Program-made: the position numbers and the translations under genes
Part shown: positions 5,752-41,281 of the stretch, piece by piece
Layout of the letters: every line of letters begins with the position of its first letter
Position numbering within the stretch: the stretch's first letter is position 1
Notes under the pieces: model-generated
What the model saw: only the letters and a program-made list of their open reading frames with translations
What the model was told of the DNA's origin: nothing
Databases searched by the model: none
Source: Baekduia soli
Lineage (GTDB): Bacteria; Actinomycetota; Thermoleophilia; Solirubrobacterales; Solirubrobacteraceae
Assembly: GCF_007970665.1 (NCBI RefSeq)
Contig: NZ_CP042430.1
Coordinates: forward strand, 1,178,001 to 1,242,000
Length of the DNA: 64,000 bases
Reading direction: 5' to 3'

Positions 5752-8013
5752 TCAGGCCGCCTCGCGCCGGGAGCGCTCGGCGTCGCGCTGCTCGAGCAGC
5801 GCGGCGAGCTCGATCGCGGGCATCGGGCGCCCGAGGCCGAAGCCCTGGGCCACGTCGCAGCCCAGCGCGACCAGGACCTCGCGCTCCTGCGCGGTCTCGA
5901 TGCCCTCGGCCACGACCCGCAGGCCCATGCTGCGGCCCATGGAGACGACGAGGCGCACGACCTCGTGGTCGAGCGGGTCATCGGCCATCCCCTTGACGAA
6001 GCTGCGGTCGATCTTGAGCTCGTCGGCGGGGAGGTGGCGCAGCTGGGCCAGCGACGACTGCCCCGTCCCGAAGTCGTCGACCGAGATCTCCACGCCGAGC
6101 TGGGCGATCCGCTCGAGCACGTCCAGGCAGCGGCGCTGGTCGTTCATCACCGCGTCCTCGGTGACCTCGACGACGAGCCGCGCGGGCGGGACGCCGTGGC
6201 GGCGCAGGGCGGTGTCGATGCGCTCGGGCAGGCCGATGTCGACGAGCGTGACCGCCGAGACGTTGACGCCGACGCGCAGCTCGAAGCCCTGGTTGGCCAG
6301 GCCGGCGCACTCGCTGAGCGCGCGGTCCAGGATCCAGTCGGTCAGCGCGGCCATCTGGCCGCTGCGCTCGGCGACGGGCAGTAGCTCGGCGGGCGACACC
6401 GGGCCGCGCTGCGGATGGTGCCAGCGGATGAGGGTCTCGGCGCCGATGATGCGGTCGGTGGCCAGCTCGACCTGCGGCTGGAACGCGGCCCACAGGCCGC
6501 CGCAGTCGCGGGCGGCCAGCGCGCGGCGCAGGTCATCGGCGAGCTCGAGCCGGTCGCGCGAGTGCTCGTCGCGATCGGCGTGGTAGCGGACGATGCCGAC
6601 GCGGCGGCGCTTGGCGTCCGACGTGGCGACGTCGGCGCGGCGGGCCAGCTCCCCGGCGTCGTTGGCGTCGTCGGGGAAGCTCGCGACGCCGACGCTGGCC
6701 TCGATCGCGACGGTCACGTCGTCGAGCTCGATCGGGATGGCGACGGCCTCGCGGATGTCGCGGGCGATCTGGGCCGTGTCGGCGGGCGGGCGCAGGACGG
6801 CGGCGAACTCGTCGGCGCCCAGGCGCACGAGCAGATCGTCGCCGACGACCGGCTTGAGGCGGTCGGCCGCCGTGCGCAGCAGCACGTCGCCGGCCTCGTG
6901 GCCGAGCGTCTCGTTGAGCTCGCGGAAGCCGTCGAGGTCGATGACCAGCAGGTCGGCGCGCTCGCCGCTGCGGCCGCCGTCGCGGGTCAGGATGTCCAGG
7001 GCGCGGAACAGCGCGCGGCGGTTGGGCAGGCCGGTCAGGTCGTCGGTCAGCGCCTCCCGGCGCTGGACGACCACGCGGCGCACGTCGCGGAGCATGAGCA
7101 TGCTGCGCACGACGCCGCCGGCGAGCGAGAGCAGGGCCAGGCCGACGGCGACCGGGTCGAGGTCGGTGAACTCGCCGACGGTCAGGATGCCCGCGCCGAC
7201 GCCGAGCAGCAGCATCGTCGGCACCGACTCCCACCAGCCGCCCATCCGCAGCGTGCCGGCCGCGCCGGGGCGCGACCACGCCGCCACGCCCAGCAGCAGG
7301 AGCTGCAGCTCCCACCCCGTGTCGAACCAGACCCCCGCGGCGGGGGCGTGGCCGGCCAGGGAGAGCACGTAGACCGTGTCGGTGACCACGGCGACGGCGA
7401 ACGTGGCGCCGAGGAGGATGTCCTCGCCGCGCATGCGGCGGCCGCTGAAGCTCGCCACGACGAACGGGATGGACGCCAGCGCGGCATCGGCGGCGGGGTA
7501 GATCAGGTTGGCGGCCGCGGTGAAGCGCGAGATCCCGCTGTGGTCGCGCACGTCGGTCAGCAGGACGGCCGTGAGGATCGACCCGAGGTAGACGGCGACG
7601 CCGACGGCGTCGAGCCAGAACGTCGGCAGCGCGTCGCCGACGCGGCGGCGCAGGTAGATCAGCAGGCCGGCCCAGAACAGCAGGTCGCCGCCGAAGAACA
7701 TGAGGTCGGCCGGCGTGTCCAGCGACTCGTGGTAGGACCAGCCCCAGAACGCGAGGCCGCCGCCGTAGAGCACCGCCCCGGCGGCCATGGCGATCCACAT
7801 CCGCCGGTCGCGCGAGACGCGCACCGCGCGCGCGACGATCAGCCCGGCCGCGAGCGCCAGCACGAGCGTGTGCCGGACGTGGTCCAGCGTGTCCGGCGCG
7901 GTCGTCATCCCGCGCACCGCGCCCGCGACGACGCCGGCCAGCAGCAGGCCGGCGCCCACGGCCGCGAGGAGCGGGACCGCGGGCAGGGGCAGCGCGGGGC
8001 GACGGGCGCTCAT
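5752..8013 (-). CDS. Membrane GGDEF-EAL protein (c-di-GMP turnover)
   Basis: 753 residues. Residues 1-305 contain a run of hydrophobic helices (roughly eight to nine), a membrane sensor module. The GGDEF domain (about 320-480) has GADEF at 399-403 in place of GGDEF and no RxxD inhibitory site five residues before it. The EAL domain (about 490-745) has ETL at 526-528, DDFGTG and KIDRSFV, so metal and substrate residues look present. The protein may be mainly a c-di-GMP phosphodiesterase with a weak or regulatory cyclase domain; this is inference. ATG start at 8013. Confidence 0.9.
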   Translation of the reverse strand: MSARRPALPLPAVPLLAAVGAGLLLAGVVAGAVRGMTTAPDTLDHVRHTLVLALAAGLIVARAVRVSRDRRMWIAMAAGAVLYGGGLAFWGWSYHESLDTPADLMFFGGDLLFWAGLLIYLRRRVGDALPTFWLDAVGVAVYLGSILTAVLLTDVRDHSGISRFTAAANLIYPAADAALASIPFVVASFSGRRMRGEDILLGATFAVAVVTDTVYVLSLAGHAPAAGVWFDTGWELQLLLLGVAAWSRPGAAGTLRMGGWWESVPTMLLLGVGAGILTVGEFTDLDPVAVGLALLSLAGGVVRSMLMLRDVRRVVVQRREALTDDLTGLPNRRALFRALDILTRDGGRSGERADLLVIDLDGFRELNETLGHEAGDVLLRTAADRLKPVVGDDLLVRLGADEFAAVLRPPADTAQIARDIREAVAIPIELDDVTVAIEASVGVASFPDDANDAGELARRADVATSDAKRRRVGIVRYHADRDEHSRDRLELADDLRRALAARDCGGLWAAFQPQVELATDRIIGAETLIRWHHPQRGPVSPAELLPVAERSGQMAALTDWILDRALSECAGLANQGFELRVGVNVSAVTLVDIGLPERIDTALRRHGVPPARLVVEVTEDAVMNDQRRCLDVLERIAQLGVEISVDDFGTGQSSLAQLRHLPADELKIDRSFVKGMADDPLDHEVVRLVVSMGRSMGLRVVAEGIETAQEREVLVALGCDVAQGFGLGRPMPAIELAALLEQRDAERSRREAA

Positions 8014-8107
8014 TGCTCAGGTGAGTCGGCCGACGCGCCCAGGGCTGAACCCCGGGCGTCCGGGTGAGCGCCTGCGCGCCACGCCGAGGGCCGCGGGGAC
8101 GCAGCGG

Positions 8108-8113
8108 TAGCCT
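8108..8113 (+). promoter_or_regulatory. -10 box TAGCCT, leaderless-type, for the M42 peptidase
   Basis: Ends 7 bases before the GTG at 8121. Confidence 0.55.
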
Positions 8114-8120
8114 GCCGGGC

Positions 8121-9176
8121 GTGCCGATCCCCGACGTCCTCAACCAGCTCCTGACCGCCGGCGGTCCCTCCGGCTACGAGACCGCGCCGGCCCGCGTGTT
8201 CGCGGAGGCCTGCGCGCCGTTCGCCGAGGTCCGGACCGACGTCATGGGCAGCGTCACCGCCCGGGTCAAGGGCACCGGGGACGGCCCGACCGTCGCGCTC
8301 GTCGGGCACATCGACGAGATCGGGCTCATCGTCACCCACATCGACGACAAGGGCTTCCTCAGCTTCACCGGCGTCGGCGGCTGGGATCCCGTGATCCTCG
8401 TCGGCCAGCGCGTCGAGCTGACGACCCGCGAAGGCGTGCTGGCCGGCGTCGTGGGCAAGAAGCCCATCCACCTGCTCAAGGACGAAGAGCGCAAGCGGGC
8501 GGCCGAGATCAAGGACCTCCACATCGACATCGGTGCCAGGGACGGCGACGAGGCCAAGGGCCTCGTGCGCATCGGCGACGTCGCGGTGATCGCCGGCGGG
8601 CCCGTGGAGCTGCGCAACGACCGGGTCATCTCGCGCTCGCTCGACAACCGCCTGGGCTGCTACGTCGCCCACGAGGCGGCGCGGCTGGTCGCCGAGGCCG
8701 GCGGTGCGGTGGGCGACGTCGTCGCCGTCGCCGCGGTGCAGGAGGAGATCACCTTCGCCGGGGCGCGCACCGTCGCCCACGCGCTGCGTCCCGACGTGGC
8801 GATCGTCATCGACGTCACGCACGCCACCGACGCGCCGGGGATCGACGAGCGCGAGGTCGGCTCGCACCCGTTCGGCTCCGGGCCGGTCATCGAGCGCGGC
8901 TCAACGCTGCACCCCGCGGTCTTCGAGCTGCTGCACGAGGCCGCCGAGGCCGAGGACGTGCCGTTCACCGTGTCGGCCTCCGCGCGCTACACCGGGACCG
9001 ATGCCGACGCGATCCACGTCAGCCGCGACGGCATCCCCACGGGCCTCATCGGCCTGCCGCTGCGCTACATGCACTCGCCGGTGGAGATGGTCCAGCTCGA
9101 CGACATCGCCAACGCGGCCCGCCTGGCCGCGGCCTTCGCCCGGCGCCTGACCGCGGGCCAGGTCTTCGAGCGCTGA
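8121..9176 (+). CDS. M42-family aminopeptidase (PepA/FrvX-like)
   Basis: 351 residues, a co-catalytic metallo-aminopeptidase of the M42 family, usually a cytosolic dodecamer that trims peptides. Metal ligands and catalytic residues can be read in order: H-D in VGHIDEIGL, bridging D in SRSLDNRLG, catalytic E-E in AVQEEITF, D in VIDVTHATD, and the final H in RYMHSPVE. GTG at 8121 is chosen because it gives the usual short N-terminus and follows a TAGCCT box. Two inverted repeats follow its stop. Confidence 0.92.
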   Translation: MPIPDVLNQLLTAGGPSGYETAPARVFAEACAPFAEVRTDVMGSVTARVKGTGDGPTVALVGHIDEIGLIVTHIDDKGFLSFTGVGGWDPVILVGQRVELTTREGVLAGVVGKKPIHLLKDEERKRAAEIKDLHIDIGARDGDEAKGLVRIGDVAVIAGGPVELRNDRVISRSLDNRLGCYVAHEAARLVAEAGGAVGDVVAVAAVQEEITFAGARTVAHALRPDVAIVIDVTHATDAPGIDEREVGSHPFGSGPVIERGSTLHPAVFELLHEAAEAEDVPFTVSASARYTGTDADAIHVSRDGIPTGLIGLPLRYMHSPVEMVQLDDIANAARLAAAFARRLTAGQVFER

Positions 9177-30661: not shown

Positions 30662-31042
30662 CTACGACCGCCGGGACGCCCGGAACGCCGGGTCGTCGGG
30701 CGCGGCGTAGCCGCCGGGGCCCTCGCGCAGCACGGCGGTGCGCAGCACGGCGCCGACGTCGATCGTCCCGTAGACGTGGGGGAAGGCCTCCCCGACGACG
30801 TCGGCGGTCTCGTGGCGCAACGGCGCGGTCAGGCGCGCCGGATCGACCACGAGCACCAGGAGGTCCCCGGCGCCCGCGAAGATGCGGTCGGCGGTCGCGA
30901 CGACCTGCGCGGGCGTCGAGCAGTGCAGGAAGCCCTCCGTCGCCAGCGAGTCCGCGGTCACGAACCCGTCGGCCCGGGCGCGCGCCCACGCCTCGGGCGT
31001 CGTGATGTGGAGGACGACCGCGTCCTCCGGGCGAGCGCTCAG
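30662..31042 (-). CDS. DUF952 family protein, probable CTG start
   Basis: About 126 residues. The family core is clear: VVLHITTPEAW, then SLATEGFLHCSTPAQV and AFPHVYGTIDVGAV. DUF952 proteins are small cytosolic proteins of unknown activity. No ATG, GTG or TTG precedes the conserved N-terminus in frame; the first in-frame GTG would remove it. A CTG at 31042-31040 overlaps the kgd stop as CTGA, the same four-base geometry used at other gene junctions here, and is taken as the start. Confidence 0.8.
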   Translation of the reverse strand: MSARPEDAVVLHITTPEAWARARADGFVTADSLATEGFLHCSTPAQVVATADRIFAGAGDLLVLVVDPARLTAPLRHETADVVGEAFPHVYGTIDVGAVLRTAVLREGPGGYAAPDDPAFRASRRS

Positions 31043-31053
31043 CGCTCGCCCGG
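31027..31053. repeat. 27-bp palindrome across the kgd stop / DUF952 start
   Basis: CCGGGCGAGCGCT and its exact complement around one C (13-bp arms). It covers the kgd stop codon and the probable CTG start. In RNA it would form a 12-bp stem with a 3-base loop, able to act as a terminator or to hide the DUF952 start until ribosomes finishing kgd open it. Confidence 0.65.
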
Positions 31054-34000
31054 GGTCTTGACGGGGTACATCGAGACCGGCACCGACAGGTCCAGCGCGG
31101 TGCGCAGGATGCGGTTCTGCTCGCCGGTGTGGGCGGCCGGGTAGCCCTCGCCCGGGCTCGCGCGCTCGGGGCGCCCGATGTAGCCGAAGGCGAGGTGGTC
31201 GGGCAGCACCTGCAGCAGGCGCGGCGACATGTGGGCACGGGCGCCCATGTTGCGCGGCTCCTCCTGGACCCAGACGACCTCGCGGAGGTTCGGGTAGGTG
31301 TTGATGAGCTCGAGCACCTGGCCCTCGGGGAAGGGGTACAGCAGCTCGATGCGCCCGATCGCGACGGCCTCGTTGTCCTCGCGCTGCGGGTGGCTGACGA
31401 GGTCGTAGTAGATCTTGCCCGTGCACAGCACCAGCCGCGTGACCTTCTCGATGGGCACGCGCGGCTCGCCGAGCACAGGGAAGAACTTGGACTCGGCCAG
31501 GTGCTCGATGCGGTTGGTGGCCTGCGGCAGGCGCAGCAGCGACTTGGGCGTGAAGATGATCAGCGGCCGCTGCTTGGTGATCCGCGCCTGGCGGCGCAGC
31601 AGGTGGAAGTACTGCGCCGGCGTGGTGAGGTTCGCCACGCGGATGTTGCCCTCGGCGGCCAGCTGCAGGAACCGCTCGATGCGGGCGCTGGAGTGCTCGG
31701 GGCCCGAGCCCTCGTAGCCGTGGGGCAGCAGGAGCGTCAGCCGCGAGGTCTGGCCCCACTTGGCCAGGCCCGAGATGATGAACTGGTCGATGATGACCTG
31801 CGCGCCGTTGGCGAAGTCGCCGAACTGCGCCTCCCACAGCACGAGCGTCTCGGGCGCCTCGGCCGAGTAGCCGTACTCGAACCCGAGCGCGGCGGTCTCG
31901 CTCAGCGGCGAGTTGTGCATCTCGATCGGGGCCAGCGCGCCGGGCAGGTTCTGGATCGGCGACACGGTCTGGCCGGTCTTGGCGTCGTGCAGGACGAGGT
32001 GGCGCTGGCTGAACGTGCCGCGCTCGACGTCCTGGCCGGTGAACCGGATCGGCGTGCCCTCCGTCAGCAGCGACGCGTAGGCCAGCGCCTCGGCGTGGGC
32101 CCAGTCGATGCCCCCGTCGGGCCCAGGGCCACGCGCCGGCGCTCGAGCTGCTTGACGAGCTTGGGGTGGACGGTGAAGCCCTCGGGCACCCGCAACAGCT
32201 CCTCGTTGAGGACGCGCAGGCGGTCGGCGTCGACGGCCGTGGGCACCTCGGGCGACGGCGAGCGGTCGAGCTGGTACTCGCCGGTCTGCTGCGTCACGCC
32301 GCCGGCGGCCTCGGCGGCCTTGATCTTGGCCTTGAGGTCCTGGTGCAGCGTGGTGAGCTCGTCCCAGATCGCCTGGGTCTGGCCGTCGACCTCGTCCTGG
32401 GTGACGGTGCCGTCGGCGACCAGGCGCTCGGCGAACAGCTCGGCGACGCGCTTGTGGCCCTTGATCTGGGCGTACATCTCGGGCTGCGTGTAGGCGGGCT
32501 CGTCGGCCTCGTTGTGGCCGAAGCGCCGGTAGCCGATGAGGTCGATGACCACGTCGTGGCCGAACTCCTCGCGGAACGCGAAGGCCAGGCGCACGGCGGC
32601 GATGGAGGCCTGCACGTCATCGGCGTTGACGTGGATGATCGGGACGTCGTAGCCCTTGGCGATGTCCGAGGCCCAGCGGGTCGAGCGCGACTCCTCCGGG
32701 TCGGTGGTGAAGCCGACCTGGTTGTTCTGCACGATGTGCAGCGTGCCGCCGACCTTATAGCCGTCGATGGCCTGGAGGTTCAGCGCCTCGGCCACGACGC
32801 CCTGGCCCGGGAAGGCCGCGTCGCCGTGCAGGACGATCGGCATCGCCGCGTCGGTGTCGCGGTGGGCGTGCGGGCCCTGGCGCGTGGTCTGGGCGGCGCG
32901 GGCGGCGCCCACGACCACGGGGTGGACGAACTCGAGGTGCGACGGGTTGCTCTCGAGGTTGACGAGGATCGACTCGCCGTTGGGCAGCTGGTAGGAGCCC
33001 TGCGCGCCGTGGTGGTACTTGACGTCGCCGGTGCCGCCCTGCGGGATCGTCGTGATCGCCTCGAGCGTCGAGGCGCCCTCGAACTCGGCGAAGATCGTCG
33101 CGTAGGGACGGCCGAGGTTGTGGGCCAGCACGTTGAGCCGGCCGCGGTGCGCCATGCCGACGACGACCTCGCGCGCCCCGTGGGCGGCGGCGAGCTGGAT
33201 CATCTCGTCGAGCATCGGGACGGTCATGTCCAGGCCCTCGACCGAGAACTGCTTCTGGCCGAGGTAGGCCTTGTGCATGAAGCGCTCGAAGGCGTCGACC
33301 TCGATCAGGCGCTTGAGCAGCGCCTTCTGCTCCTCGGTGGTCAGCGGCTTGCGGAACGCGCCGCCCTCGATCTTCTCGCGCAGCCAGGTGCGCTGGCGGT
33401 GGGAGGCGAGGTGCTCGATCTCGTAGGCGATCGTGCCGCAGTAGGTCTCGCGCAGGTGGGGCAGCGCGTCGGCCAGCGTCGCGCCCGGCACGTGCATCCG
33501 CAGGATCTTGGCGGGGATCTTGGCCAGGAGCTCGGGGGTGAGGCCCACGGTGTCGGGATCCAGCGCCGGGTCGCCCTCGGGCTCGGTGCCCAGCGGGTCG
33601 AGCCGGGCGGCCAGGTGGCCGTGGGTGCGGTGGGCCTTGAGCAGCGACGTCGCCGCCTGCACGGCCTGCAGCAGCTCCTCGTCGATGACGTTGGCGCGGC
33701 GATCGCCGGCGCGGGCGTCGCGCGCGGCGGCCGCGGCGGCGGCGGGCGCGGGCGGCGAGGGGACCGGCCCGAGCTCGGCGCCCAGCGAGGCGAAGACGCC
33801 GTCGTAGAAGCCGTTCTCGCCCTGGAGGTAGCCCTCGACGACCTGCAGGAAGCGGCCGGACTCGGCGCCCTGGATCACGCGGTGGTCGTACGTCGAGGTC
33901 ATGGTCATGACCTTCTCGGCGCCGATCATGTCGCCGATGTTGCCCAGGCCGACGGGGTAGGCGATCGAGCCGGTGGCCACGATCGTGCCGTTGCCCTTCA

Positions 34001-35350
34001 TGAGCCGCGGGACCGAGGCGATCGTGCCGATGCCGCCCGGGTTCGTCAGCTGGACGTTGGCGCCCGTGAGGTCGTCGGCGGTCAGCTTGTTCTCGCGCGC
34101 CTTGGCGATGAGGTCGTCGAAGGCGGCCTTGAAGTCCTGGAAGCTCAGCCGGCCCGCGTCGCGGATGACCGGCACCATGAGCGTGCGGCTGCCGTCCTTC
34201 TTCTCGACGTCGACGGCGATGCCCAGGTGGACGGCGTCGTCGTCGATGCGCGTCGGCTTGCCGTCGATCGTGTCGAAGTGGTGGGCCATCACCGGCATGT
34301 CCTGCTGGGCGGCCAGCGCGATCGCGTAGGCGATCAGGTGCGTGAAGGACACCTTCTGGCCGGCGTCCTTGAGCTGGCGGCGCCGCGCGTCCATCGTCGT
34401 GACGGTGATCGTGCGGAAGGACGTCGCGGTCGGGATCTCCCGCGAGTCGTCCATGTACTTGGCGAGCATCGCCGCGGCGCCCTTGAGCACCGTGTGCGAG
34501 CCGGCGGCCGGCGCGGCGGCGGACGCCGCGGCGCCGTTGCCCGACCGTGCGTCGAGCACGTCGCCCTTGGTGATGCGGCCCTGCGGGCCCGTGCCGGCGA
34601 CGCCGGCGAGGTCGATGCCCTCGGCGGCCGCGACGCGCGCCGCGACGGCCGAGACCTTGGAGAGGTCGGCGGGGGCGGTCGTCTCGGCGGGGCCGGTGGC
34701 GGCCGCGGCCGGGGTGCCGCCGCCGGGCACGGCGGGGCCGGCGCCGGCGCCGAGCTGCATCCGCGCGATGACCTGGCCGACGACGACCGTCTCGCCCTCG
34801 TCGGCGAGGATCTCGGTGATGGTGCCCGCGGCGGGGGCGGGCAGCTCCATGTCGACCTTGTCGGTGGAGATCTCGACGACCGTGTCGCCGTCGGAGACGT
34901 GGTCGCCGACCTTGACCGCCCACTCGAGGATCGTGCCCTCGGTGACCGACTCGCCGCCGGCGGGCGTCGTGATGTCGACGATCTCGCCCGTCGCGTCGCC
35001 GTCGCCGTCGCCGTCCGCCTGCTCGGGGCCTCGGGCAGCGTGGTCGCGGACGCACCACTCCCGTTGGCGCGGTTGCCGTTGGCCGTCGCCGCGCCGTCGC
35101 CGACGCTGATCTCGGCCAGCACGGAGCCCACCTGGACGGTGTCGCCCTCGGCGTGATGGATCTTCACGATGGTCCCGCTCGTGGGAGCGGGGACCTCGGC
35201 ATCCACCTTGTCGGTCGAGATCTCGACGAGCGTCTCGTCGGCCTCGATGGTGTCACCTTCCTGCTTGTGCCACTCCAGGATGGTGCCTTCCGTCACCGAC
35301 TCGCCCATGGCGGGGAGGGTGACCTCGATCACTGCGGCTTCGACGGCCAT
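31039..35350 (-). CDS. kgd: Fused 2-oxoglutarate dehydrogenase E2-E1 (Kgd) with two lipoyl domains, two frameshifts
   Basis: About 1437 residues once two single-base losses are repaired (35025-35028 and 32119-32121, both in C runs of the coding strand). In order: lipoyl domain 1 ([12 protein letters not shown]), lipoyl domain 2 ([12 protein letters not shown]), peripheral-subunit-binding domain ([18 protein letters not shown]), E2 catalytic domain ([13 protein letters not shown] keeps the histidine), then the thiamine-diphosphate E1 domain ([43 protein letters not shown]). It oxidatively decarboxylates 2-oxoglutarate to succinyl-CoA. Mycobacterial Kgd lacks the lipoyl and binding domains. ATG 35350; TAATAC promoter box about 30 bases upstream. 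DUF952 overlaps its stop. Confidence 0.93.
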
Positions 35351-35366: not shown

Positions 35367-35675
35367 CTAGCGCTCGTTCGTATTAGCGGCGGTTAGGTTC
35401 CGGCGTCGCTCTTCCCGGATGAACTCCCACGAACCGACGAACGGTCCGACCGCGCCGATGACGGCCACGGCGACGGCGAGGCGCAGGGAGATGACGCGTG
35501 AGCGCAGGGCCTCGAGGCACAGCACGCACATGAGGATCCAGCCGACGCCGTGCGCGAGCCCGAAGACGAACTCGAAGGTGTGCAGTCCCGGGACCAGCCA
35601 GACGGTGAGCAGGATCGCGTACACGGTCGAGTGCGCGAAGGAGAGGTGCTTGAGGGTCTGGAAGGTGAGGCTCAC
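35367..35675 (-). CDS. DUF3817-type small membrane protein
   Basis: 102 residues with about three hydrophobic helices (roughly residues 14-33, 35-55 and 63-83) and a positively charged tail. [12 protein letters not shown] and [12 protein letters not shown] match the DUF3817 pattern of actinobacterial integral membrane proteins. GTG 35675 overlaps the Nudix stop by four bases. Its last codons contain a TAATAC box that may drive kgd. Function unknown. Confidence 0.75.
35380..35385 (-). promoter_or_regulatory. -10 box TAATAC for kgd
   Basis: Minus-strand TAATAC, about 30 bases before the kgd ATG, inside the end of the DUF3817 gene. This implies a short leader, unlike the leaderless genes nearby; AAAGAGA lies just before the ATG. 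Confidence 0.45.
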
Positions 35676-36325
35676 GCCAGCAGCCGCGCCATGCGGCGCA
35701 GCGGTTCGTCGGCCTCGGGGGGCCATGCATCGATGTCGGCCGGCCACCAGGCATGCTCGTCGTGCTCGTCGTCGGGGACGACCGTGGCGCCCTCGGGCAG
35801 CCAGGCCTGGCCCACGAACATGACCGCCTGATGGGGCAGGCGCACCAGCGCCTCGCCCACGACACGATTCGGCGTGACCGACCACTCCTCCTGCAACTCG
35901 CGCGTGAGGGTGTCGAACGGGCTCTCGCCCTCGTCGACCGCGCCGCCCGCGCCCAGCGCCCAGCGCCCGGCCCAGGTCGACAGCCACGCCGCCCGCCGCC
36001 CGGCCAGCCAGCGGCCCTCGCTGTCGCGCGTGACGCAGAGCGCCGAGATCGACTGGGAGGCGTCGCCCTCCACCAGGCGCAGGGCCCAGCGCAGCGGCTG
36101 CAGCTCGAGCTCGAGCCCCGCGCCGGTGGCGCTGAAGCCCACCAGGCGCGCGGCGACACCGTCGTGGCTGGGCGAGCCGCGGTCGCGCAGGGCCCGGATC
36201 GCGGCGTCCGCGGCCTGCACGGTCGGCGCCGCGGGCTCGAACGGCTCGGGCCGCCAGACCACGCGCACCTGCGCGGCGTCCCAGGGGCCGCGGGCCAGCA
36301 GCGCGGGTGCGGGCGCTTGCGTCAT
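35672..36325 (-). CDS. Nudix hydrolase family protein
   Basis: 217 residues. The Nudix box fits G-x5-E-x7-R-E-x2-E-E: GAVDEGE, then seven residues, then RELQEEW near residue 140, which binds magnesium for pyrophosphate hydrolysis. The first 90 residues form a non-Nudix N-terminal part. Substrate unknown. ATG 36325 with TACCTT 9 bases upstream. Divergent from the DUF35 cluster with overlapping -10 boxes, and coupled to DUF3817 downstream. Confidence 0.85.
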   Translation of the reverse strand: MTQAPAPALLARGPWDAAQVRVVWRPEPFEPAAPTVQAADAAIRALRDRGSPSHDGVAARLVGFSATGAGLELELQPLRWALRLVEGDASQSISALCVTRDSEGRWLAGRRAAWLSTWAGRWALGAGGAVDEGESPFDTLTRELQEEWSVTPNRVVGEALVRLPHQAVMFVGQAWLPEGATVVPDDEHDEHAWWPADIDAWPPEADEPLRRMARLLA

Positions 36326-36353: not shown

Positions 36354-36704
36354 TTGGAGCGCTCTCCCGCCGACGTCTTCGCCGAGCACTGCCGCCGTCA
36401 CGAGCTGGCCTACCAGGTCGATCGCGAGGGCCATCCGGTCTTCCGCCCGCGCGTGGGCCACGACACCTGGCGCGTCAGCGCCGGCCTGGGCACGGTGTAC
36501 GCGGTGACCGTCGTGCGCCGTCGCGGCGAGGACCCGCACACCCTGGCGCTCATCGACGTCGACGAGGGCTTCCGCATGATGAGCACGGTGGTCGGGCCTG
36601 CGCCCGAGGACGTCCGGGTCGGCCTGCGCGTGCGCCTGGCCTGGCGCGAGGACGGCGAGGTGCCCGTGCCCGTCTTCGAGCCGGCCGACGAGGTGGCGGC
36701 GTGA
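36354..36704 (+). CDS. DUF35 OB-fold protein, partner of the thiolase-like gene
   Basis: 116 residues, starting at TTG. The fold follows the DUF35 pattern: short helix, a stretch where a zinc ribbon normally sits, then an OB fold (SAGLGTVYAVTVVRR, ALIDVDEGFRMM, VRVGLRVRLAW). The zinc-ribbon cysteines are missing. DUF35 proteins bind CoA esters and form complexes with thiolase-like aldolases, as ChsH2 does with Ltp2 and BbsA with BbsB. The gene overlaps the thiolase-like gene by four bases (GTGA), as expected for complex partners. Confidence 0.78.
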   Translation: MERSPADVFAEHCRRHELAYQVDREGHPVFRPRVGHDTWRVSAGLGTVYAVTVVRRRGEDPHTLALIDVDEGFRMMSTVVGPAPEDVRVGLRVRLAWREDGEVPVPVFEPADEVAA

Positions 36705-37909
36705 TCGCGATCGCCGGCGCGGCCGAGGTCCAGCTCGGCAAGGCGCTGCCCGGGCTGAGCGCCTCCGACGTGATGGCCGACGCGGCCCTCGCCGCGCTGG
36801 ACGACGCCGGGCTGACCACGCAGGACGTCGACGGGCTCTTCGCCTCGAGCACGCAGATGCCCTGGGCGACGGTCAACCTCGGCGAGGACCTGCGGATCCA
36901 GCCGCGCTACTCGGACTCCACGATGCTCGGCGGCTCATCGCCCATGGCGCACCTGGAGCACGCGCGCGCCGCGATCGCGGCCGGGCTCTGCGAGGTCGCG
37001 CTCATCGCCTACGGCTCCACGCAGCGCTCCGTCGGACGCTCCAAGGCGTCCGTCCAGGAGATCGACCCGTGGGAGGCCCCGTACCACCCGTGGTTCCCCG
37101 TCGCCGCCTACGCGCTGGTGACCTCGCGTCACATGTACGAGTACGGCACGACGCCCGAGCAGCTGGCGTGGGTGGCGGTCAGCGCGCGGCGCTGGGCGCA
37201 GCGCAACCCCGACGCGTGGTCGCGCGACGACCTGACGATCGCCGACGTGCTCGCCGCCCCGCGCGTCTGCGATCCGATCGGCACGCTGGACTGCTGCCTG
37301 GTGACCGACGGCGGCGGCGCGTTGGTCGTCACGTCGGCCGAGCGCGCGCGGACGCTGCGCCGCAAGCCCGTCCACGTGCTCGGCACCGGCGAGGCCCACA
37401 GCCACCGCGCCATCTCGGCCATGCCGTCGTTGACGCGCACCTGCGCGGTGGAGTCGGGCGCCCGCGCGTTCGAGGAGGCCGGCCTGCGGCCCGAGGACGT
37501 CGACAGCCTCCAGCTCTACGACGCGTTCACGATCACGCCGATCCTGTTCCTCGAGGACCTCGGGTTCTGCGCCAAGGGCGAGGGCGGGGCGTTCGTGGCC
37601 GACGGGCGGATCGCCCCCGACGGCGTGCTGCCGGTCAACACGAGCGGCGGCGGCCTGAGCTACGCCCATCCGGGCATGAACGGGATGCAGCTGCTGGTCG
37701 AGGCCGTGCGCCAGATCCGCCACCACGACCGCGACGTCGTGCTGGCCCACGGCAACGGCGGCGTCCTCAGCACGCAGTGCACGGTCCTGCTGGGCAGCGA
37801 GGCGGCCGCCGGGCAGCGGCCGAAGGCCGGGCGCATGCGCGTCGCGCGCCCGGCGGAGCCCGCGGCGCGCCGCCGCCGCGGCCCGGTGGTCCGCGTCCGC
37901 GCGCGATGA
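36701..37909 (+). CDS. Thiolase-like protein (Ltp2/BbsB type)
   Basis: 402 residues of the thiolase superfamily, SCP2-thiolase branch. The nucleophilic cysteine region reads LFASSTQMPW, without a cysteine, whereas the C-terminal HGNGGVLSTQ and the tyrosine motif SLQLYDAFTITP are kept. That tyrosine is catalytic in Ltp2-type retro-aldolases. The enzyme may therefore cleave or form C-C bonds of a hydroxyacyl-CoA together with the DUF35 protein. An arginine-rich tail of about 25 residues is unusual. GTG start, coupled both upstream and downstream. Confidence 0.82.
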   Translation: MIAIAGAAEVQLGKALPGLSASDVMADAALAALDDAGLTTQDVDGLFASSTQMPWATVNLGEDLRIQPRYSDSTMLGGSSPMAHLEHARAAIAAGLCEVALIAYGSTQRSVGRSKASVQEIDPWEAPYHPWFPVAAYALVTSRHMYEYGTTPEQLAWVAVSARRWAQRNPDAWSRDDLTIADVLAAPRVCDPIGTLDCCLVTDGGGALVVTSAERARTLRRKPVHVLGTGEAHSHRAISAMPSLTRTCAVESGARAFEEAGLRPEDVDSLQLYDAFTITPILFLEDLGFCAKGEGGAFVADGRIAPDGVLPVNTSGGGLSYAHPGMNGMQLLVEAVRQIRHHDRDVVLAHGNGGVLSTQCTVLLGSEAAAGQRPKAGRMRVARPAEPAARRRRGPVVRVRAR

Positions 37910-39474
37910 GCCGGCGGCGGGCGTCGTGGGGCTGGGGCTTCGCCGACGCCAAGCTCGATCCCTCGGCGCTCGGCCCGCTCGTGGCCGGCGAGCTCGGCGT
38001 CGCGCTCCGCACGCCCGAGGCGCCGGCCGACCCCGGGGCGATCGCGCTCCCCGCGCCGCGCGTGCCGGTCCCGGCCCGCGCGCCGTTCTCCATCGACCAC
38101 GGCGACCGCGTCGCGCACGCCCGTGGGTGCTCGTTCCCCGACACGCTGGCCTCCCTGCGCGGGCGGGTGCCCGACGCGCCCGACGCCGTCGCCTTCGCCC
38201 GCAGCGAGGACGACGTGGAGCAGGTGCTGGCGTGGGCGGCGGCCGAAGACGTCGCGGTGGTCCCCTACGGCGGCGGCACGAGCGTGGTGGGCGGGGTGAC
38301 GCCGCGGGTCGGTCCCGCGTTCGCCGGCGTGGTGTCGCTCGACGTCTCCGGGCTGGACCGCGTGCTGGAGGTCGACCACGTCTCGCGGGCGGCGCGGATC
38401 CAGGCCGGGGCGTCCGGGCCGCGCCTGGAGGCCCAGCTGGCCGAGCACGACCTCACGCTACGGTTCTTCCCGCAGTCGTTCGAGCTCTCGACGCTGGGCG
38501 GCTGGATCGCCACCCGCGCCGGGGGGCACTTCGCCACGCTGTGGACGCACATCGACGACCTCGTCGAGTCCGTCCGTGCGATCACGCCATCCGGGGCCTG
38601 GGAGAGCCGCCGGCTGCCGGGCAGCGGCGCCGGCCCCTCGCCGGACCGGATGCTCCTGGGCTCCGAGGGCGTCCTGGGCGTGGTCACCGAGGCGTGGATG
38701 CGCGTGCAGCCTCGGCCGCGCTTCCGCGCCGGCGGCGTCGTGCGCTTCGCCGGCTTCGGCACGGGCGCGCAGGGCGTCCGCGCGATCGCGCAGTCCGGGC
38801 TGCACCCGGCCAACTGCCGGCTGCTGGACCCGCTCGAGGCCCGCGGCACGGGCGCCGCGGCCGGCCCGGGCGAGGACCGCGCGGTGCTCGTGCTCGGCTT
38901 CGAGTCCACCGACCACGAGGTGCAGGACGCGCTCGGGCGGGCGCTGGCGATCTGCCGCGACCACGGCGGCGAGCCCGACGCCCCCACGGCGGCCGGCGGC
39001 CCCGGGGCGGCGGGCGCCTGGCGCGAGGCGTTCCTGGCGATGCCCTACCTCCGCGACGCCCTGCTGCAGCTCGGCGTGCTGGCCGACACGTTCGAGACCG
39101 CGGTGACGTGGGACCGCTTCGACGCGTTCCACGCGGCGGTCACGGGCGCGGTGCGCGAGGCGCTGGGCGAGCCGTGCCGCGTGACGTGCCGGTTCACGCA
39201 CGTCTACCCCGACGGGCCGGCGCCGTACTACACCGTGCTGGCCCCGGCGCGCCACGGCGACGAGCTGGCACAGTGGGAGGCGATGAAGCGCGCAGCGTCC
39301 GACGCCATCCTCGCCGCGGGCGGGACGATCACCCACCATCACGCGGTCGGGCGCGACCACCGGCCCTGGTACGACGAGCAGCGCCCCGACCTGTTCGCCG
39401 CCGCGCTGCGGGCGGCCAAGCGCGCCGTCGACCCGGCGGGCCTGCTGAACCCCGGCGTGCTGGTCGACGCGTGA
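37906..39474 (+). CDS. FAD-linked oxidase, alkyl-dihydroxyacetonephosphate synthase-like
   Basis: 522 residues. It matches the alkyl-DHAP synthase (AGPS) subgroup of the vanillyl-alcohol-oxidase family: RGCSFPDTLASLRG, FAD-binding PYGGGTSVVGGV, FFPQSFELSTLGGWIATRAG, and the C-terminal histidine cluster THHHAVGRD. In eukaryotes and some bacteria AGPS replaces the acyl chain of acyl-DHAP with an alkyl chain, making ether lipids. Whether this homologue does so is untested. ATG start overlaps the thiolase-like stop (ATGA), its stop overlaps the LOG start (GTGA). Confidence 0.88.
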   Translation: MSRRRASWGWGFADAKLDPSALGPLVAGELGVALRTPEAPADPGAIALPAPRVPVPARAPFSIDHGDRVAHARGCSFPDTLASLRGRVPDAPDAVAFARSEDDVEQVLAWAAAEDVAVVPYGGGTSVVGGVTPRVGPAFAGVVSLDVSGLDRVLEVDHVSRAARIQAGASGPRLEAQLAEHDLTLRFFPQSFELSTLGGWIATRAGGHFATLWTHIDDLVESVRAITPSGAWESRRLPGSGAGPSPDRMLLGSEGVLGVVTEAWMRVQPRPRFRAGGVVRFAGFGTGAQGVRAIAQSGLHPANCRLLDPLEARGTGAAAGPGEDRAVLVLGFESTDHEVQDALGRALAICRDHGGEPDAPTAAGGPGAAGAWREAFLAMPYLRDALLQLGVLADTFETAVTWDRFDAFHAAVTGAVREALGEPCRVTCRFTHVYPDGPAPYYTVLAPARHGDELAQWEAMKRAASDAILAAGGTITHHHAVGRDHRPWYDEQRPDLFAAALRAAKRAVDPAGLLNPGVLVDA

Positions 39475-40064
39475 GCTCGCGCTGGGTCTGCGTCTACGCG
39501 GGGTCGGCGGAGGGCGCCGACCCGACCTACGCGCGGGCGGCGTCCGCGCTGGCCGGCGAGCTGGCCCGGCGCGGCGCCGGCGTCGTCTACGGCGGCGGCA
39601 GCCTCGGGCTCATGGGCGTCGTCGCCGACGCCGCGCTGGCCGCGGGCGGCGAGGTCGTCGGCGTGATCCCGCGGTTCCTCGACGAGCGCGAGATCGCCCA
39701 CCCCGGCCTGACCGCGCTGCACGTCACGGAGACCATGCACGACCGCAAGATGCGCATGGCCGACCTGGCCGATGCGTTCGTCGTGCTGCCCGGCGGCATC
39801 GGGACGCTCGAGGAGGTCGCCGAGATGCTGTCCTGGTCGCAGCTCGGGCTGCACCGCAAGCCGATCGGCCTGCTGGACACCGCCGGGTTCTGGGGGCCGC
39901 TGGTCGCGCTGCTGGACCACATGACCGTCGAGCGCTTCGTGGGCCTGGACCACCGCCGGCTGCTGCTCGCGCGTGCCGACCCCGTGGAGCTGCTCGACGC
40001 GATGGACGCGTGGGAGCCGCCGCCGATCGCCCGGCGCTGGCTGCACGAGGGCGACGAAACCTAG
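39471..40064 (+). CDS. LOG family protein (nucleotide phosphoribohydrolase-like)
   Basis: 197 residues with a Rossmann-like fold. Signature GGGSLGLMGVVADAAL near residue 40 and VLPGGIGTLEEV near residue 105, the P-G-G-x-G-T-x-x-E motif of the Lonely Guy family, which removes ribose 5-phosphate from nucleotides such as cytokinin monophosphates or AMP. Last gene of the overlapping cluster; its place after thiolase and AGPS-like genes has no obvious metabolic reason. Its TAG stop is part of the next gene's -10 box. Confidence 0.9.
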   Translation: MSSRWVCVYAGSAEGADPTYARAASALAGELARRGAGVVYGGGSLGLMGVVADAALAAGGEVVGVIPRFLDEREIAHPGLTALHVTETMHDRKMRMADLADAFVVLPGGIGTLEEVAEMLSWSQLGLHRKPIGLLDTAGFWGPLVALLDHMTVERFVGLDHRRLLLARADPVELLDAMDAWEPPPIARRWLHEGDET

Positions 40065-40948: not shown

Positions 40949-41281
40949 ATGTCCGACACGTCGAAGATCGCCAAGAACCTCAAGGCCTTCCAGATCGCGA
41001 TCAACGCCCACGACCGCGAGAACCCGACGCACAACGCGTACGGGATCGGCCTGGCGCACTTCGACCTCGAGCGCCTCGGGTTCGACGAGGGCGAGGAGAT
41101 CCTGCCGGGCATCACGATCCACGCCGACAGCGGCGTGACCGGCAACTTCCGCGTGCTGTGCGACGGCCAGCACGACGAGAACCTCGAGCGCGAGGCCGAG
41201 GAGGCCGACATGGTCGAGGCGGTCGCCGCCGAGCGGGGCATCACGATCGCGCCCGGCGGCGGCGAGCGGCGGGACTGGTAG
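40949..41281 (+). CDS. Small acidic hypothetical protein
   Basis: 110 residues, strongly acidic in the C-terminal half. It starts with a helix (SKIAKNLKAFQIAINAHD) followed by YGIGLAHFDLERLGFDEGEE, ILPGITIHADSG and a cysteine in RVLCDGQHDEN. No signal peptide, membrane segment or family I recognise. A clear -10 box and normal codon use support it as a real gene with its own promoter. Confidence 0.7.
   Translation: MSDTSKIAKNLKAFQIAINAHDRENPTHNAYGIGLAHFDLERLGFDEGEEILPGITIHADSGVTGNFRVLCDGQHDENLEREAEEADMVEAVAAERGITIAPGGGERRDW

What the first reader, a model, noticed from the sequence alone, without database searches (positions are those of the whole stretch)
36354..40064. Overlapping cluster DUF35 / thiolase-like / alkyl-DHAP-synthase-like / LOG
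Four genes joined by four-base overlaps. The thiolase-like protein lacks the cysteine but keeps the Ltp2-type tyrosine, so pairs with DUF35 as a C-C lyase or ligase. The AGPS-like enzyme next to it suggests handling of a lipid or polyketide-like acyl-CoA. I know of no described pathway joining these four.
Basis: partly seen in the sequence, partly recalled or inferred. Interest (0 to 1): 0.6.

Follow-up and report, generated by a model that had tools for sequence, protein, structure and literature searches.

The report
Cysteine-less thiolase pair beside ether-lipid synthase
Four overlapping soil-bacterium genes turn out to be three separate modules that came together stepwise (a widespread cysteine-free thiolase-like enzyme with its small partner, a much older ether-lipid-type enzyme, and a late-arriving nucleotide-hydrolase-like gene), so this is probably not one four-step pathway, although the thiolase-like enzyme has an active site unlike its studied relatives.

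Summary
Window 36354-40064 (+) holds DUF35, thiolase-like, AGPS-like and LOG genes, each overlapping the next by 4 bases. Such overlaps are common here (10 of 43 same-strand neighbours).

Conservation shows three modules of different age. (1) The AGPS-like gene is a syntenic, order-wide gene (175/232 genomes), normally beside NUDIX and kgd, with all AGPS catalytic residues. (2) The DUF35-thiolase pair is a widespread two-gene unit (DUF35 directly upstream in 79/79 scanned loci), usually among acyl-CoA catabolic genes. It entered the NUDIX|AGPS gap once (12 sequences form one clade, 97/83) and was kept in two genera. (3) LOG joined in only three genomes. DUF35-thiolase-AGPS is therefore a real, lineage-limited operon; a four-gene pathway is not supported.

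The thiolase-like protein lacks the nucleophilic Cys (Gly77) and has Tyr273 in YDAF, as in Ltp2 and Sal. But its second residue is the thiolase-type His323, not Ltp2's Tyr344 or Sal's Cys304. This Tyr/His combination is invariant across the family. The most likely chemistry is retro-aldol (or reverse) C-C cleavage of a 3-hydroxyacyl-CoA; the substrate is unknown. The partner DUF35 has lost its zinc ribbon.

The parts
36354..36704 (+). DUF35 / OB_ChsH2_C protein (116 aa, TTG start), partner subunit of the thiolase-like enzyme; zinc ribbon deleted, no CxxC
   Evidence: PF01796 E 2.5e-15; ChsH2 6ok1_B and Sal-partner 9myr_B by phmmer; start conserved and Cys lost
36701..37909 (+). thiolase-like C-C lyase/ligase candidate (402 aa); Gly77 in place of the nucleophilic Cys, Tyr273-Asp-Ala275-Phe, His323 of the HP motif
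   Evidence: NF004811 (PRK06158) 526 bits, cut-off 421; closest solved structure 4u4e 362 bits; residues invariant in relatives
37906..39474 (+). alkyl-DHAP-synthase (AGPS)-type FAD enzyme (522 aa)
   Evidence: phmmer E 4e-62 to the AGPS structure 2uuu; Arg305, Arg383, Tyr441 and HHH 477-479 conserved
39471..40064 (+). LOG-type Rossmann protein (197 aa), PGGIGTLEE motif
   Evidence: TIGR00730 179.8 bits, cut-off 96.35; 5zbj 228 bits
40077..40937 (+). PanE/ApbA-like reductase; downstream of AGPS in many genera of the order
   Evidence: TIGR00745 149 bits, cut-off 141; synteny
35672..36325 (-). NUDIX gene, divergent; the ancestral neighbour of AGPS that marks the insertion site of the DUF35-thiolase pair
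   Evidence: PF00293; direct NUDIX|AGPS adjacency in genomes without the pair

Best explanation
A composite operon of independent modules. DUF35 (36354-36704) and the thiolase-like protein (36701-37909) form a heteromeric acyl-CoA enzyme of the PRK06158/4U4E family. It probably cleaves (or joins) a C-C bond by aldol chemistry: Tyr273 takes the proton from the 3-hydroxyl of a 3-hydroxyacyl-CoA, and His323 (the place of Ltp2's acid Tyr344 and of the thiolase GHP His) stabilises and protonates the acyl-CoA enolate, giving acetyl- or propionyl-CoA plus an aldehyde or ketone. The pair was inserted once, in an ancestor of the thiolase clade found in two genera, upstream of an older, vertically inherited AGPS-type gene that makes alkyl-DHAP or a similar ether-lipid precursor by FAD chemistry. 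LOG was added later in a sub-lineage. Shown: gene content, overlaps, synteny, single origin of the insertion, conserved residues. Inferred: complex formation, aldol chemistry, AGPS activity, co-transcription. Unknown: the substrate, and whether the two enzymes share metabolites.
For: AGPS ortholog in 175 of 232 genomes of the order at NUDIX/kgd synteny, usually with no pair. Pair elsewhere without AGPS/LOG beside it in most genomes that have it; thiolase ortholog in only 31 of 232. G018 (99% complete) has the pair and no AGPS ortholog. Twelve insertion-site thiolases form one clade, 97/83 support. LOG between AGPS and PanE only in the own genome, G001 and G006. DUF35 directly upstream of the thiolase in 79/79 loci across phyla; AGPS in 1/80, a genus-g8 relative, and LOG in 0/80. 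Acyl-CoA enzymes within six genes in 31 of 41 called loci; MaoC-type hydratase directly before the pair in three Bordetella/Achromobacter loci. Tyr273 and Asp274 invariant, and Gly77 and His323 invariant where the column is read, in 110 relatives of 45% identity or more. Tyr294/Tyr344 in Ltp2 and Tyr302/Cys304 in Sal: PMC12329534. AGPS residues R352, R447 and Y508 (PMC3509576) kept in every full-length order member read.
Against: The DUF35-thiolase-AGPS order and the thiolase/AGPS 4-base overlap persist across two genera, and G013 (genus g8) lacks all three genes together, so some functional coupling is possible. No experiment known to me shows aldol activity for any YDAF/His member. His323 sits where a thiolase His also acts, so other acyl-CoA chemistry is possible. 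Ala275 was part of one search pattern, so its invariance among the scanned loci is partly ascertained.
Confidence: 0.6

Rival explanations
1. A dedicated pathway: the DUF35-thiolase pair releases a long-chain aldehyde from a 3-hydroxyacyl-CoA, the aldehyde is reduced to an alcohol, and the AGPS-like enzyme exchanges it into acyl-DHAP to make ether lipids; the operon ties chain supply to ether formation.
For: Three-gene unit kept in two genera after one insertion, with the overlap kept in G001, G005, G006 and G207; joint absence in G013; AGPS residues intact; reductase-type families related to fatty acyl reductases exist in the genome.
Against: AGPS persists without the pair in most of the order and the pair without AGPS elsewhere. 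The joint absence in G013 is one event. No aldehyde reductase is in the operon except possibly PanE, which is present at AGPS loci without the pair.
Confidence: 0.12
2. The thiolase-like protein carries out different acyl-CoA chemistry: a Cys-free Claisen-type condensation or decarboxylation, or it is a catalytically weak binding subunit.
For: Both thiolase cysteines are gone but the GHP-type His is kept; related DUF35 complexes include Friedel-Crafts acylases and thiolases (PMC12329534).
Against: Tyr273 is invariant and matches the proven catalytic base of two aldolases; a MaoC-type hydratase beside the pair in some species fits a 3-hydroxyacyl-CoA substrate.
Confidence: 0.25
3. The AGPS-like protein is a FAD dehydrogenase for a 2-hydroxyacid or similar substrate, not an ether-bond former.
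For: It belongs to the vanillyl-alcohol-oxidase/GlcD superfamily and also matches GlcD profiles, well under their cut-offs. The genome has two further AGPS homologs, one followed by a PlsC-type acyltransferase and one near a GlpD-like gene, which look better placed for ether lipids.
Against: Much stronger match to eukaryotic AGPS (4e-62) than to glycolate or lactate dehydrogenases (5e-24 and weaker), and R352/R447/Y508/HHH are all kept.
Confidence: 0.2

Closest known systems
PRK06158 / NF004811 'acetyl-CoA acetyltransferase' and the thiolase structure 4U4E
   Same: Same family over the full length (526 bits over a 421 cut-off; 362 bits to 4u4e); same GG, YD-A/S-F and HPGM motifs
   Different: No paper on 4U4E was found in the held library; the family name implies a Cys thiolase, which the sequence excludes
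Ltp2-ChsH2 steroid side-chain aldolase (6OK1)
   Same: Thiolase-fold protein plus DUF35 subunit, Cys nucleophile gone, Tyr base in YDxF
   Different: Acid Tyr344 is His323 and the YDHF His is Ala275; DUF35 here is a free-standing small protein without the ChsH2 hydratase half and without the Cys4 zinc ribbon
Sal-Shy bile-acid aldolase (9MYR)
   Same: Gly at the Cys position, Tyr base, DUF35 partner
   Different: Cys304 (required in Sal) is Ala275; Gln352 is His323; no MaoC fusion in the partner
Eukaryotic AGPS (2UUU, 4BBY) and Myxococcus Agps
   Same: Two-domain FAD protein with R352/R447/Y508 and HHH equivalents
   Different: Lacks the long N-terminal region of the peroxisomal enzymes; activity untested in this order as far as I found
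LOG cytokinin riboside 5'-monophosphate phosphoribohydrolases (5ZBJ)
   Same: Full-length similarity, RK..M and PGGxGT..E motifs
   Different: Below the NCBIfam LOG equivalog cut-off (126.7 of 300 bits)

Membership tests
Ltp2-type steroid aldolase | DUF35 partner encoded with the thiolase-fold subunit | tested here: met
Ltp2-type steroid aldolase | YDHF motif with base Tyr294 and oxyanion His296 | tested here: not met
   YDAF: Tyr kept, His is Ala275
Ltp2-type steroid aldolase | general-acid Tyr344 | tested here: not met
   aligned residue is His323, invariant in the family where read
Ltp2-type steroid aldolase | retro-aldol cleavage of steroid side-chain CoA | not testable with these tools
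   no assay
Sal-type aldolase | catalytic Tyr302 and Cys304 (YDCY) | tested here: not met
   Ala275 at the Cys304 place
Cys-nucleophile thiolase | nucleophilic Cys in the N-terminal half | tested here: not met
   Gly77; Gly in every relative read down to 45% identity
PRK06158/NF004811 subfamily | score over the curated cut-off | tested here: met
   526.4 against 421
ChsH2-type DUF35 | OB-fold domain over cut-off | tested here: met
   56.6 against 27.1 bits
ChsH2-type DUF35 | Cys4 zinc ribbon | tested here: not met
   no ribbon Cys, loop shortened, in the window and its clade
AGPS | full-length similarity to eukaryotic AGPS | tested here: met
   E 4e-62 and 3e-60
AGPS | catalytic R352, R447, Y508 (Dictyostelium numbering) | tested here: met
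   Arg305, Arg383, Tyr441; a numbering offset of 3 between chain and paper is inferred
AGPS | alkyl-DHAP formation | not testable with these tools
   needs an assay
LOG | TIGR00730 subfamily and PGGxGTxxE | tested here: met
   179.8 bits over 96.35; LPGGIGTLEE
LOG | NCBIfam LOG equivalog cut-off (NF058542) | tested here: not met
   126.7 of 300 bits

The most novel reading that the evidence does not exclude
A Tyr/His thiolase-fold aldolase class, widespread under the label 'acetyl-CoA acetyltransferase' with a DUF35 partner that has often lost its zinc ribbon, has in two Solirubrobacterales genera been wired upstream of an AGPS-type enzyme so that aldol-derived chains feed ether-lipid synthesis.
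Probability: 0.1. Interest if true: 0.6.

Novelty: new variant of a known kind. Interest (0 to 1): 0.3.

Why it matters
A large, cross-phylum protein family is annotated as acetyl-CoA acetyltransferase although no close member read here keeps the cysteine that this activity needs. Its invariant Tyr/His pair differs from both studied aldolase active sites, so it is a clear, testable third solution in the thiolase fold. The cluster also shows how a two-gene enzyme can slip into a conserved locus and look like a pathway with an unrelated neighbour.

Tried and rejected
Four-gene pathway: rejected as the default because each module has its own distribution. Ltp2 membership: rejected on two of the catalytic residues. 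Plasmalogen desaturase as a pointer to ether lipids: PF10520 found nothing in 61 relatives, but the controls found nothing either, so this is uninformative. PF07993 for fatty acyl reductase: hits in the own genome, but the family is broad and matches in all controls. Paper searches for 4U4E, for YDAF/YDSF motifs and for Solirubrobacter ether lipids gave nothing relevant. AGPS beyond the order: no genome outside the order was listed at E 1e-120 in the class sample. Structure prediction was not run: fold and closest structures were already clear by sequence, and co-folding of the pair was not on offer.
Full report
What is there. The window lies in a 5.21-Mb single-contig genome. Loci of the same genus, family and order codes match records named Solirubrobacterales, so the organism is very probably of that order; the tool gives codes, not names. 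Four-base overlaps occur in 10 of 43 same-strand neighbour pairs of this window, so the overlaps alone are weak evidence.

Families. DUF35: PF01796, 56.6 bits. Thiolase-like: NF004811/PRK06158, 526 bits over a cut-off of 421, closest solved structure 4u4e. AGPS-like: FAD_binding_4 plus FAD-oxidase_C, E 4e-62 to the AGPS structure 2uuu. LOG: TIGR00730. A PanE/ApbA-like gene follows.

Active site of the thiolase-like protein. Alignments to 9myr (Sal), 6ok1 (Ltp2), 7yvy and 7pxp put Gly77 at the nucleophilic Cys, Tyr273 at Ltp2 Tyr294 / Sal Tyr302, Ala275 at Ltp2 His296 / Sal Cys304, and His323 at Ltp2 Tyr344 / Sal Gln352, which is also the thiolase GHP His. The roles of the Ltp2 and Sal residues are from PMC12329534; that paper also states that Sal has Gly in place of the Cys. 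In 110 relatives of at least 45% identity Tyr273 and Asp274 are invariant, and Gly77 and His323 are invariant wherever the column is read; the four more distant relatives have YDC and mostly lose the His. His323 was not part of the search patterns, so its invariance is not an artefact of the scan; Ala275 was part of one of the two patterns. I therefore read this as a third active-site type in the thiolase-fold aldolase group. Aldol chemistry is inferred, not shown.

The DUF35 partner. It lies directly upstream of the thiolase in 79 of 79 loci with enough sequence. In the window clade the zinc ribbon is deleted and no Cys remains. Elsewhere the ribbon ranges from four or five Cys (25 sequences) through one or two (23) to none (up to 59, several of which are cut short in my alignment). 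Loss of zinc is thus a wide trend and not special to this genome.

The AGPS-like gene. A homolog at E up to 1e-80 is found in 175 of 232 genomes of the order, in most of them an ortholog of 55-76% identity. In 14 of 20 fetched AGPS loci NUDIX lies nearby, usually directly divergent, with the kgd-like gene beyond, and PanE, a small gene and PPX often follow. Only three of those 20 also carry the thiolase (L088, L092 and L093, all genus g8); L090 and L100 are from genomes whose pair lies elsewhere. Arg305, Arg383, Tyr441 and three histidines, equivalent to residues shown to matter in Dictyostelium AGPS (R352, R447, Y508; PMC3509576), are kept in all order members read and in the paralogs of the own genome. 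Agps is needed for alkenyl ethers in Myxococcus and homologs are reported from many phyla including Actinobacteria (PMC11868695), so an ether-lipid role is the natural reading, not a demonstrated one.

How the cluster arose. Thiolase orthologs (E up to 1e-100) are in 31 of 232 genomes of the order. Those beside NUDIX, that is at the AGPS locus, come from genera g1 and g8: the own genome, G001, G002, G003, G005, G006, G034, G048, G204, G205, G206 and G207. AGPS follows the thiolase directly in eight of these; spacers or inserted genes separate them in G034 and G048; the contig ends in G003; and in G206 AGPS is not in the 1.1 kb left on the contig. These twelve thiolases form one clade with support 97/83, so one insertion explains them. 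Genomes on the neighbouring branches (G018, G010, G009, G148, G149, G078) carry the pair elsewhere, with no AGPS or LOG beside it. G018 and G010 have a NUDIX locus without AGPS; G009 and G078 have both modules at separate places. LOG sits between AGPS and PanE only in the own genome, G001 and G006.

Is there a functional link? For: the three-gene order and the overlap are kept within genus g1 and in part of g8, and G013 lacks all three together. Against: neither module needs the other across the order, and a contiguous block can be lost in one event. In the wider family the pair keeps company with acyl-CoA dehydrogenases, enoyl-CoA hydratases, CoA transferases, acyl-CoA synthetases and MaoC-type hydratases (31 of 41 called loci; these names are my reading of the sequences, not a family scan), not with AGPS (1 of 80, a g8 relative) or LOG (0 of 80). 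The balance favours independent enzymes sharing a transcript, with the linked ether-lipid idea left open at about 0.1.

Limits. Gene calls outside the window are from a simple codon-usage caller written here, checked by tblastn for the genes that matter. Genome completeness varies; absence claims rest mainly on genomes of 94% or more (G013, G010, G018). Co-transcription, complex formation and all activities are inferred.

Noticed in passing
window 31039-35350 (-): The kgd/sucA-like gene is read in three ORFs here but is one 1420-aa ORF in G006 (L035): two apparent frameshifts near 35.0 kb and 32.1 kb, either assembly errors or a recent lesion.
   Followed up: partly
L232 7775-9349 (-) and L233 about 6839-8478 (+), own genome C1 5.11 Mb and 2.81 Mb: Two further AGPS homologs with all catalytic residues: one near a GlpD-like (DAO_C) gene and a TetR-like gene, one followed by a PF01553 acyltransferase; the second lies in two frames.
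   Followed up: partly
window 40949-41281 (+): Small 110-aa protein (MSDTSKIAKNLKAF...), no Pfam match, strongly conserved beside PanE/AGPS in many genera of the order; a possible distant relative (about 31% identity) takes its place in genus g8.
   Followed up: partly
window 35367-35675 (-): 102-aa predicted membrane protein with no Pfam match, conserved between NUDIX and kgd across the order.
   Followed up: no
L099 10282-11066 (+): Between AGPS and PanE in this genus lie an ArsR-type regulator and a second small gene, in the slot that LOG takes in the window: the gap after AGPS seems to collect different genes.
   Followed up: no
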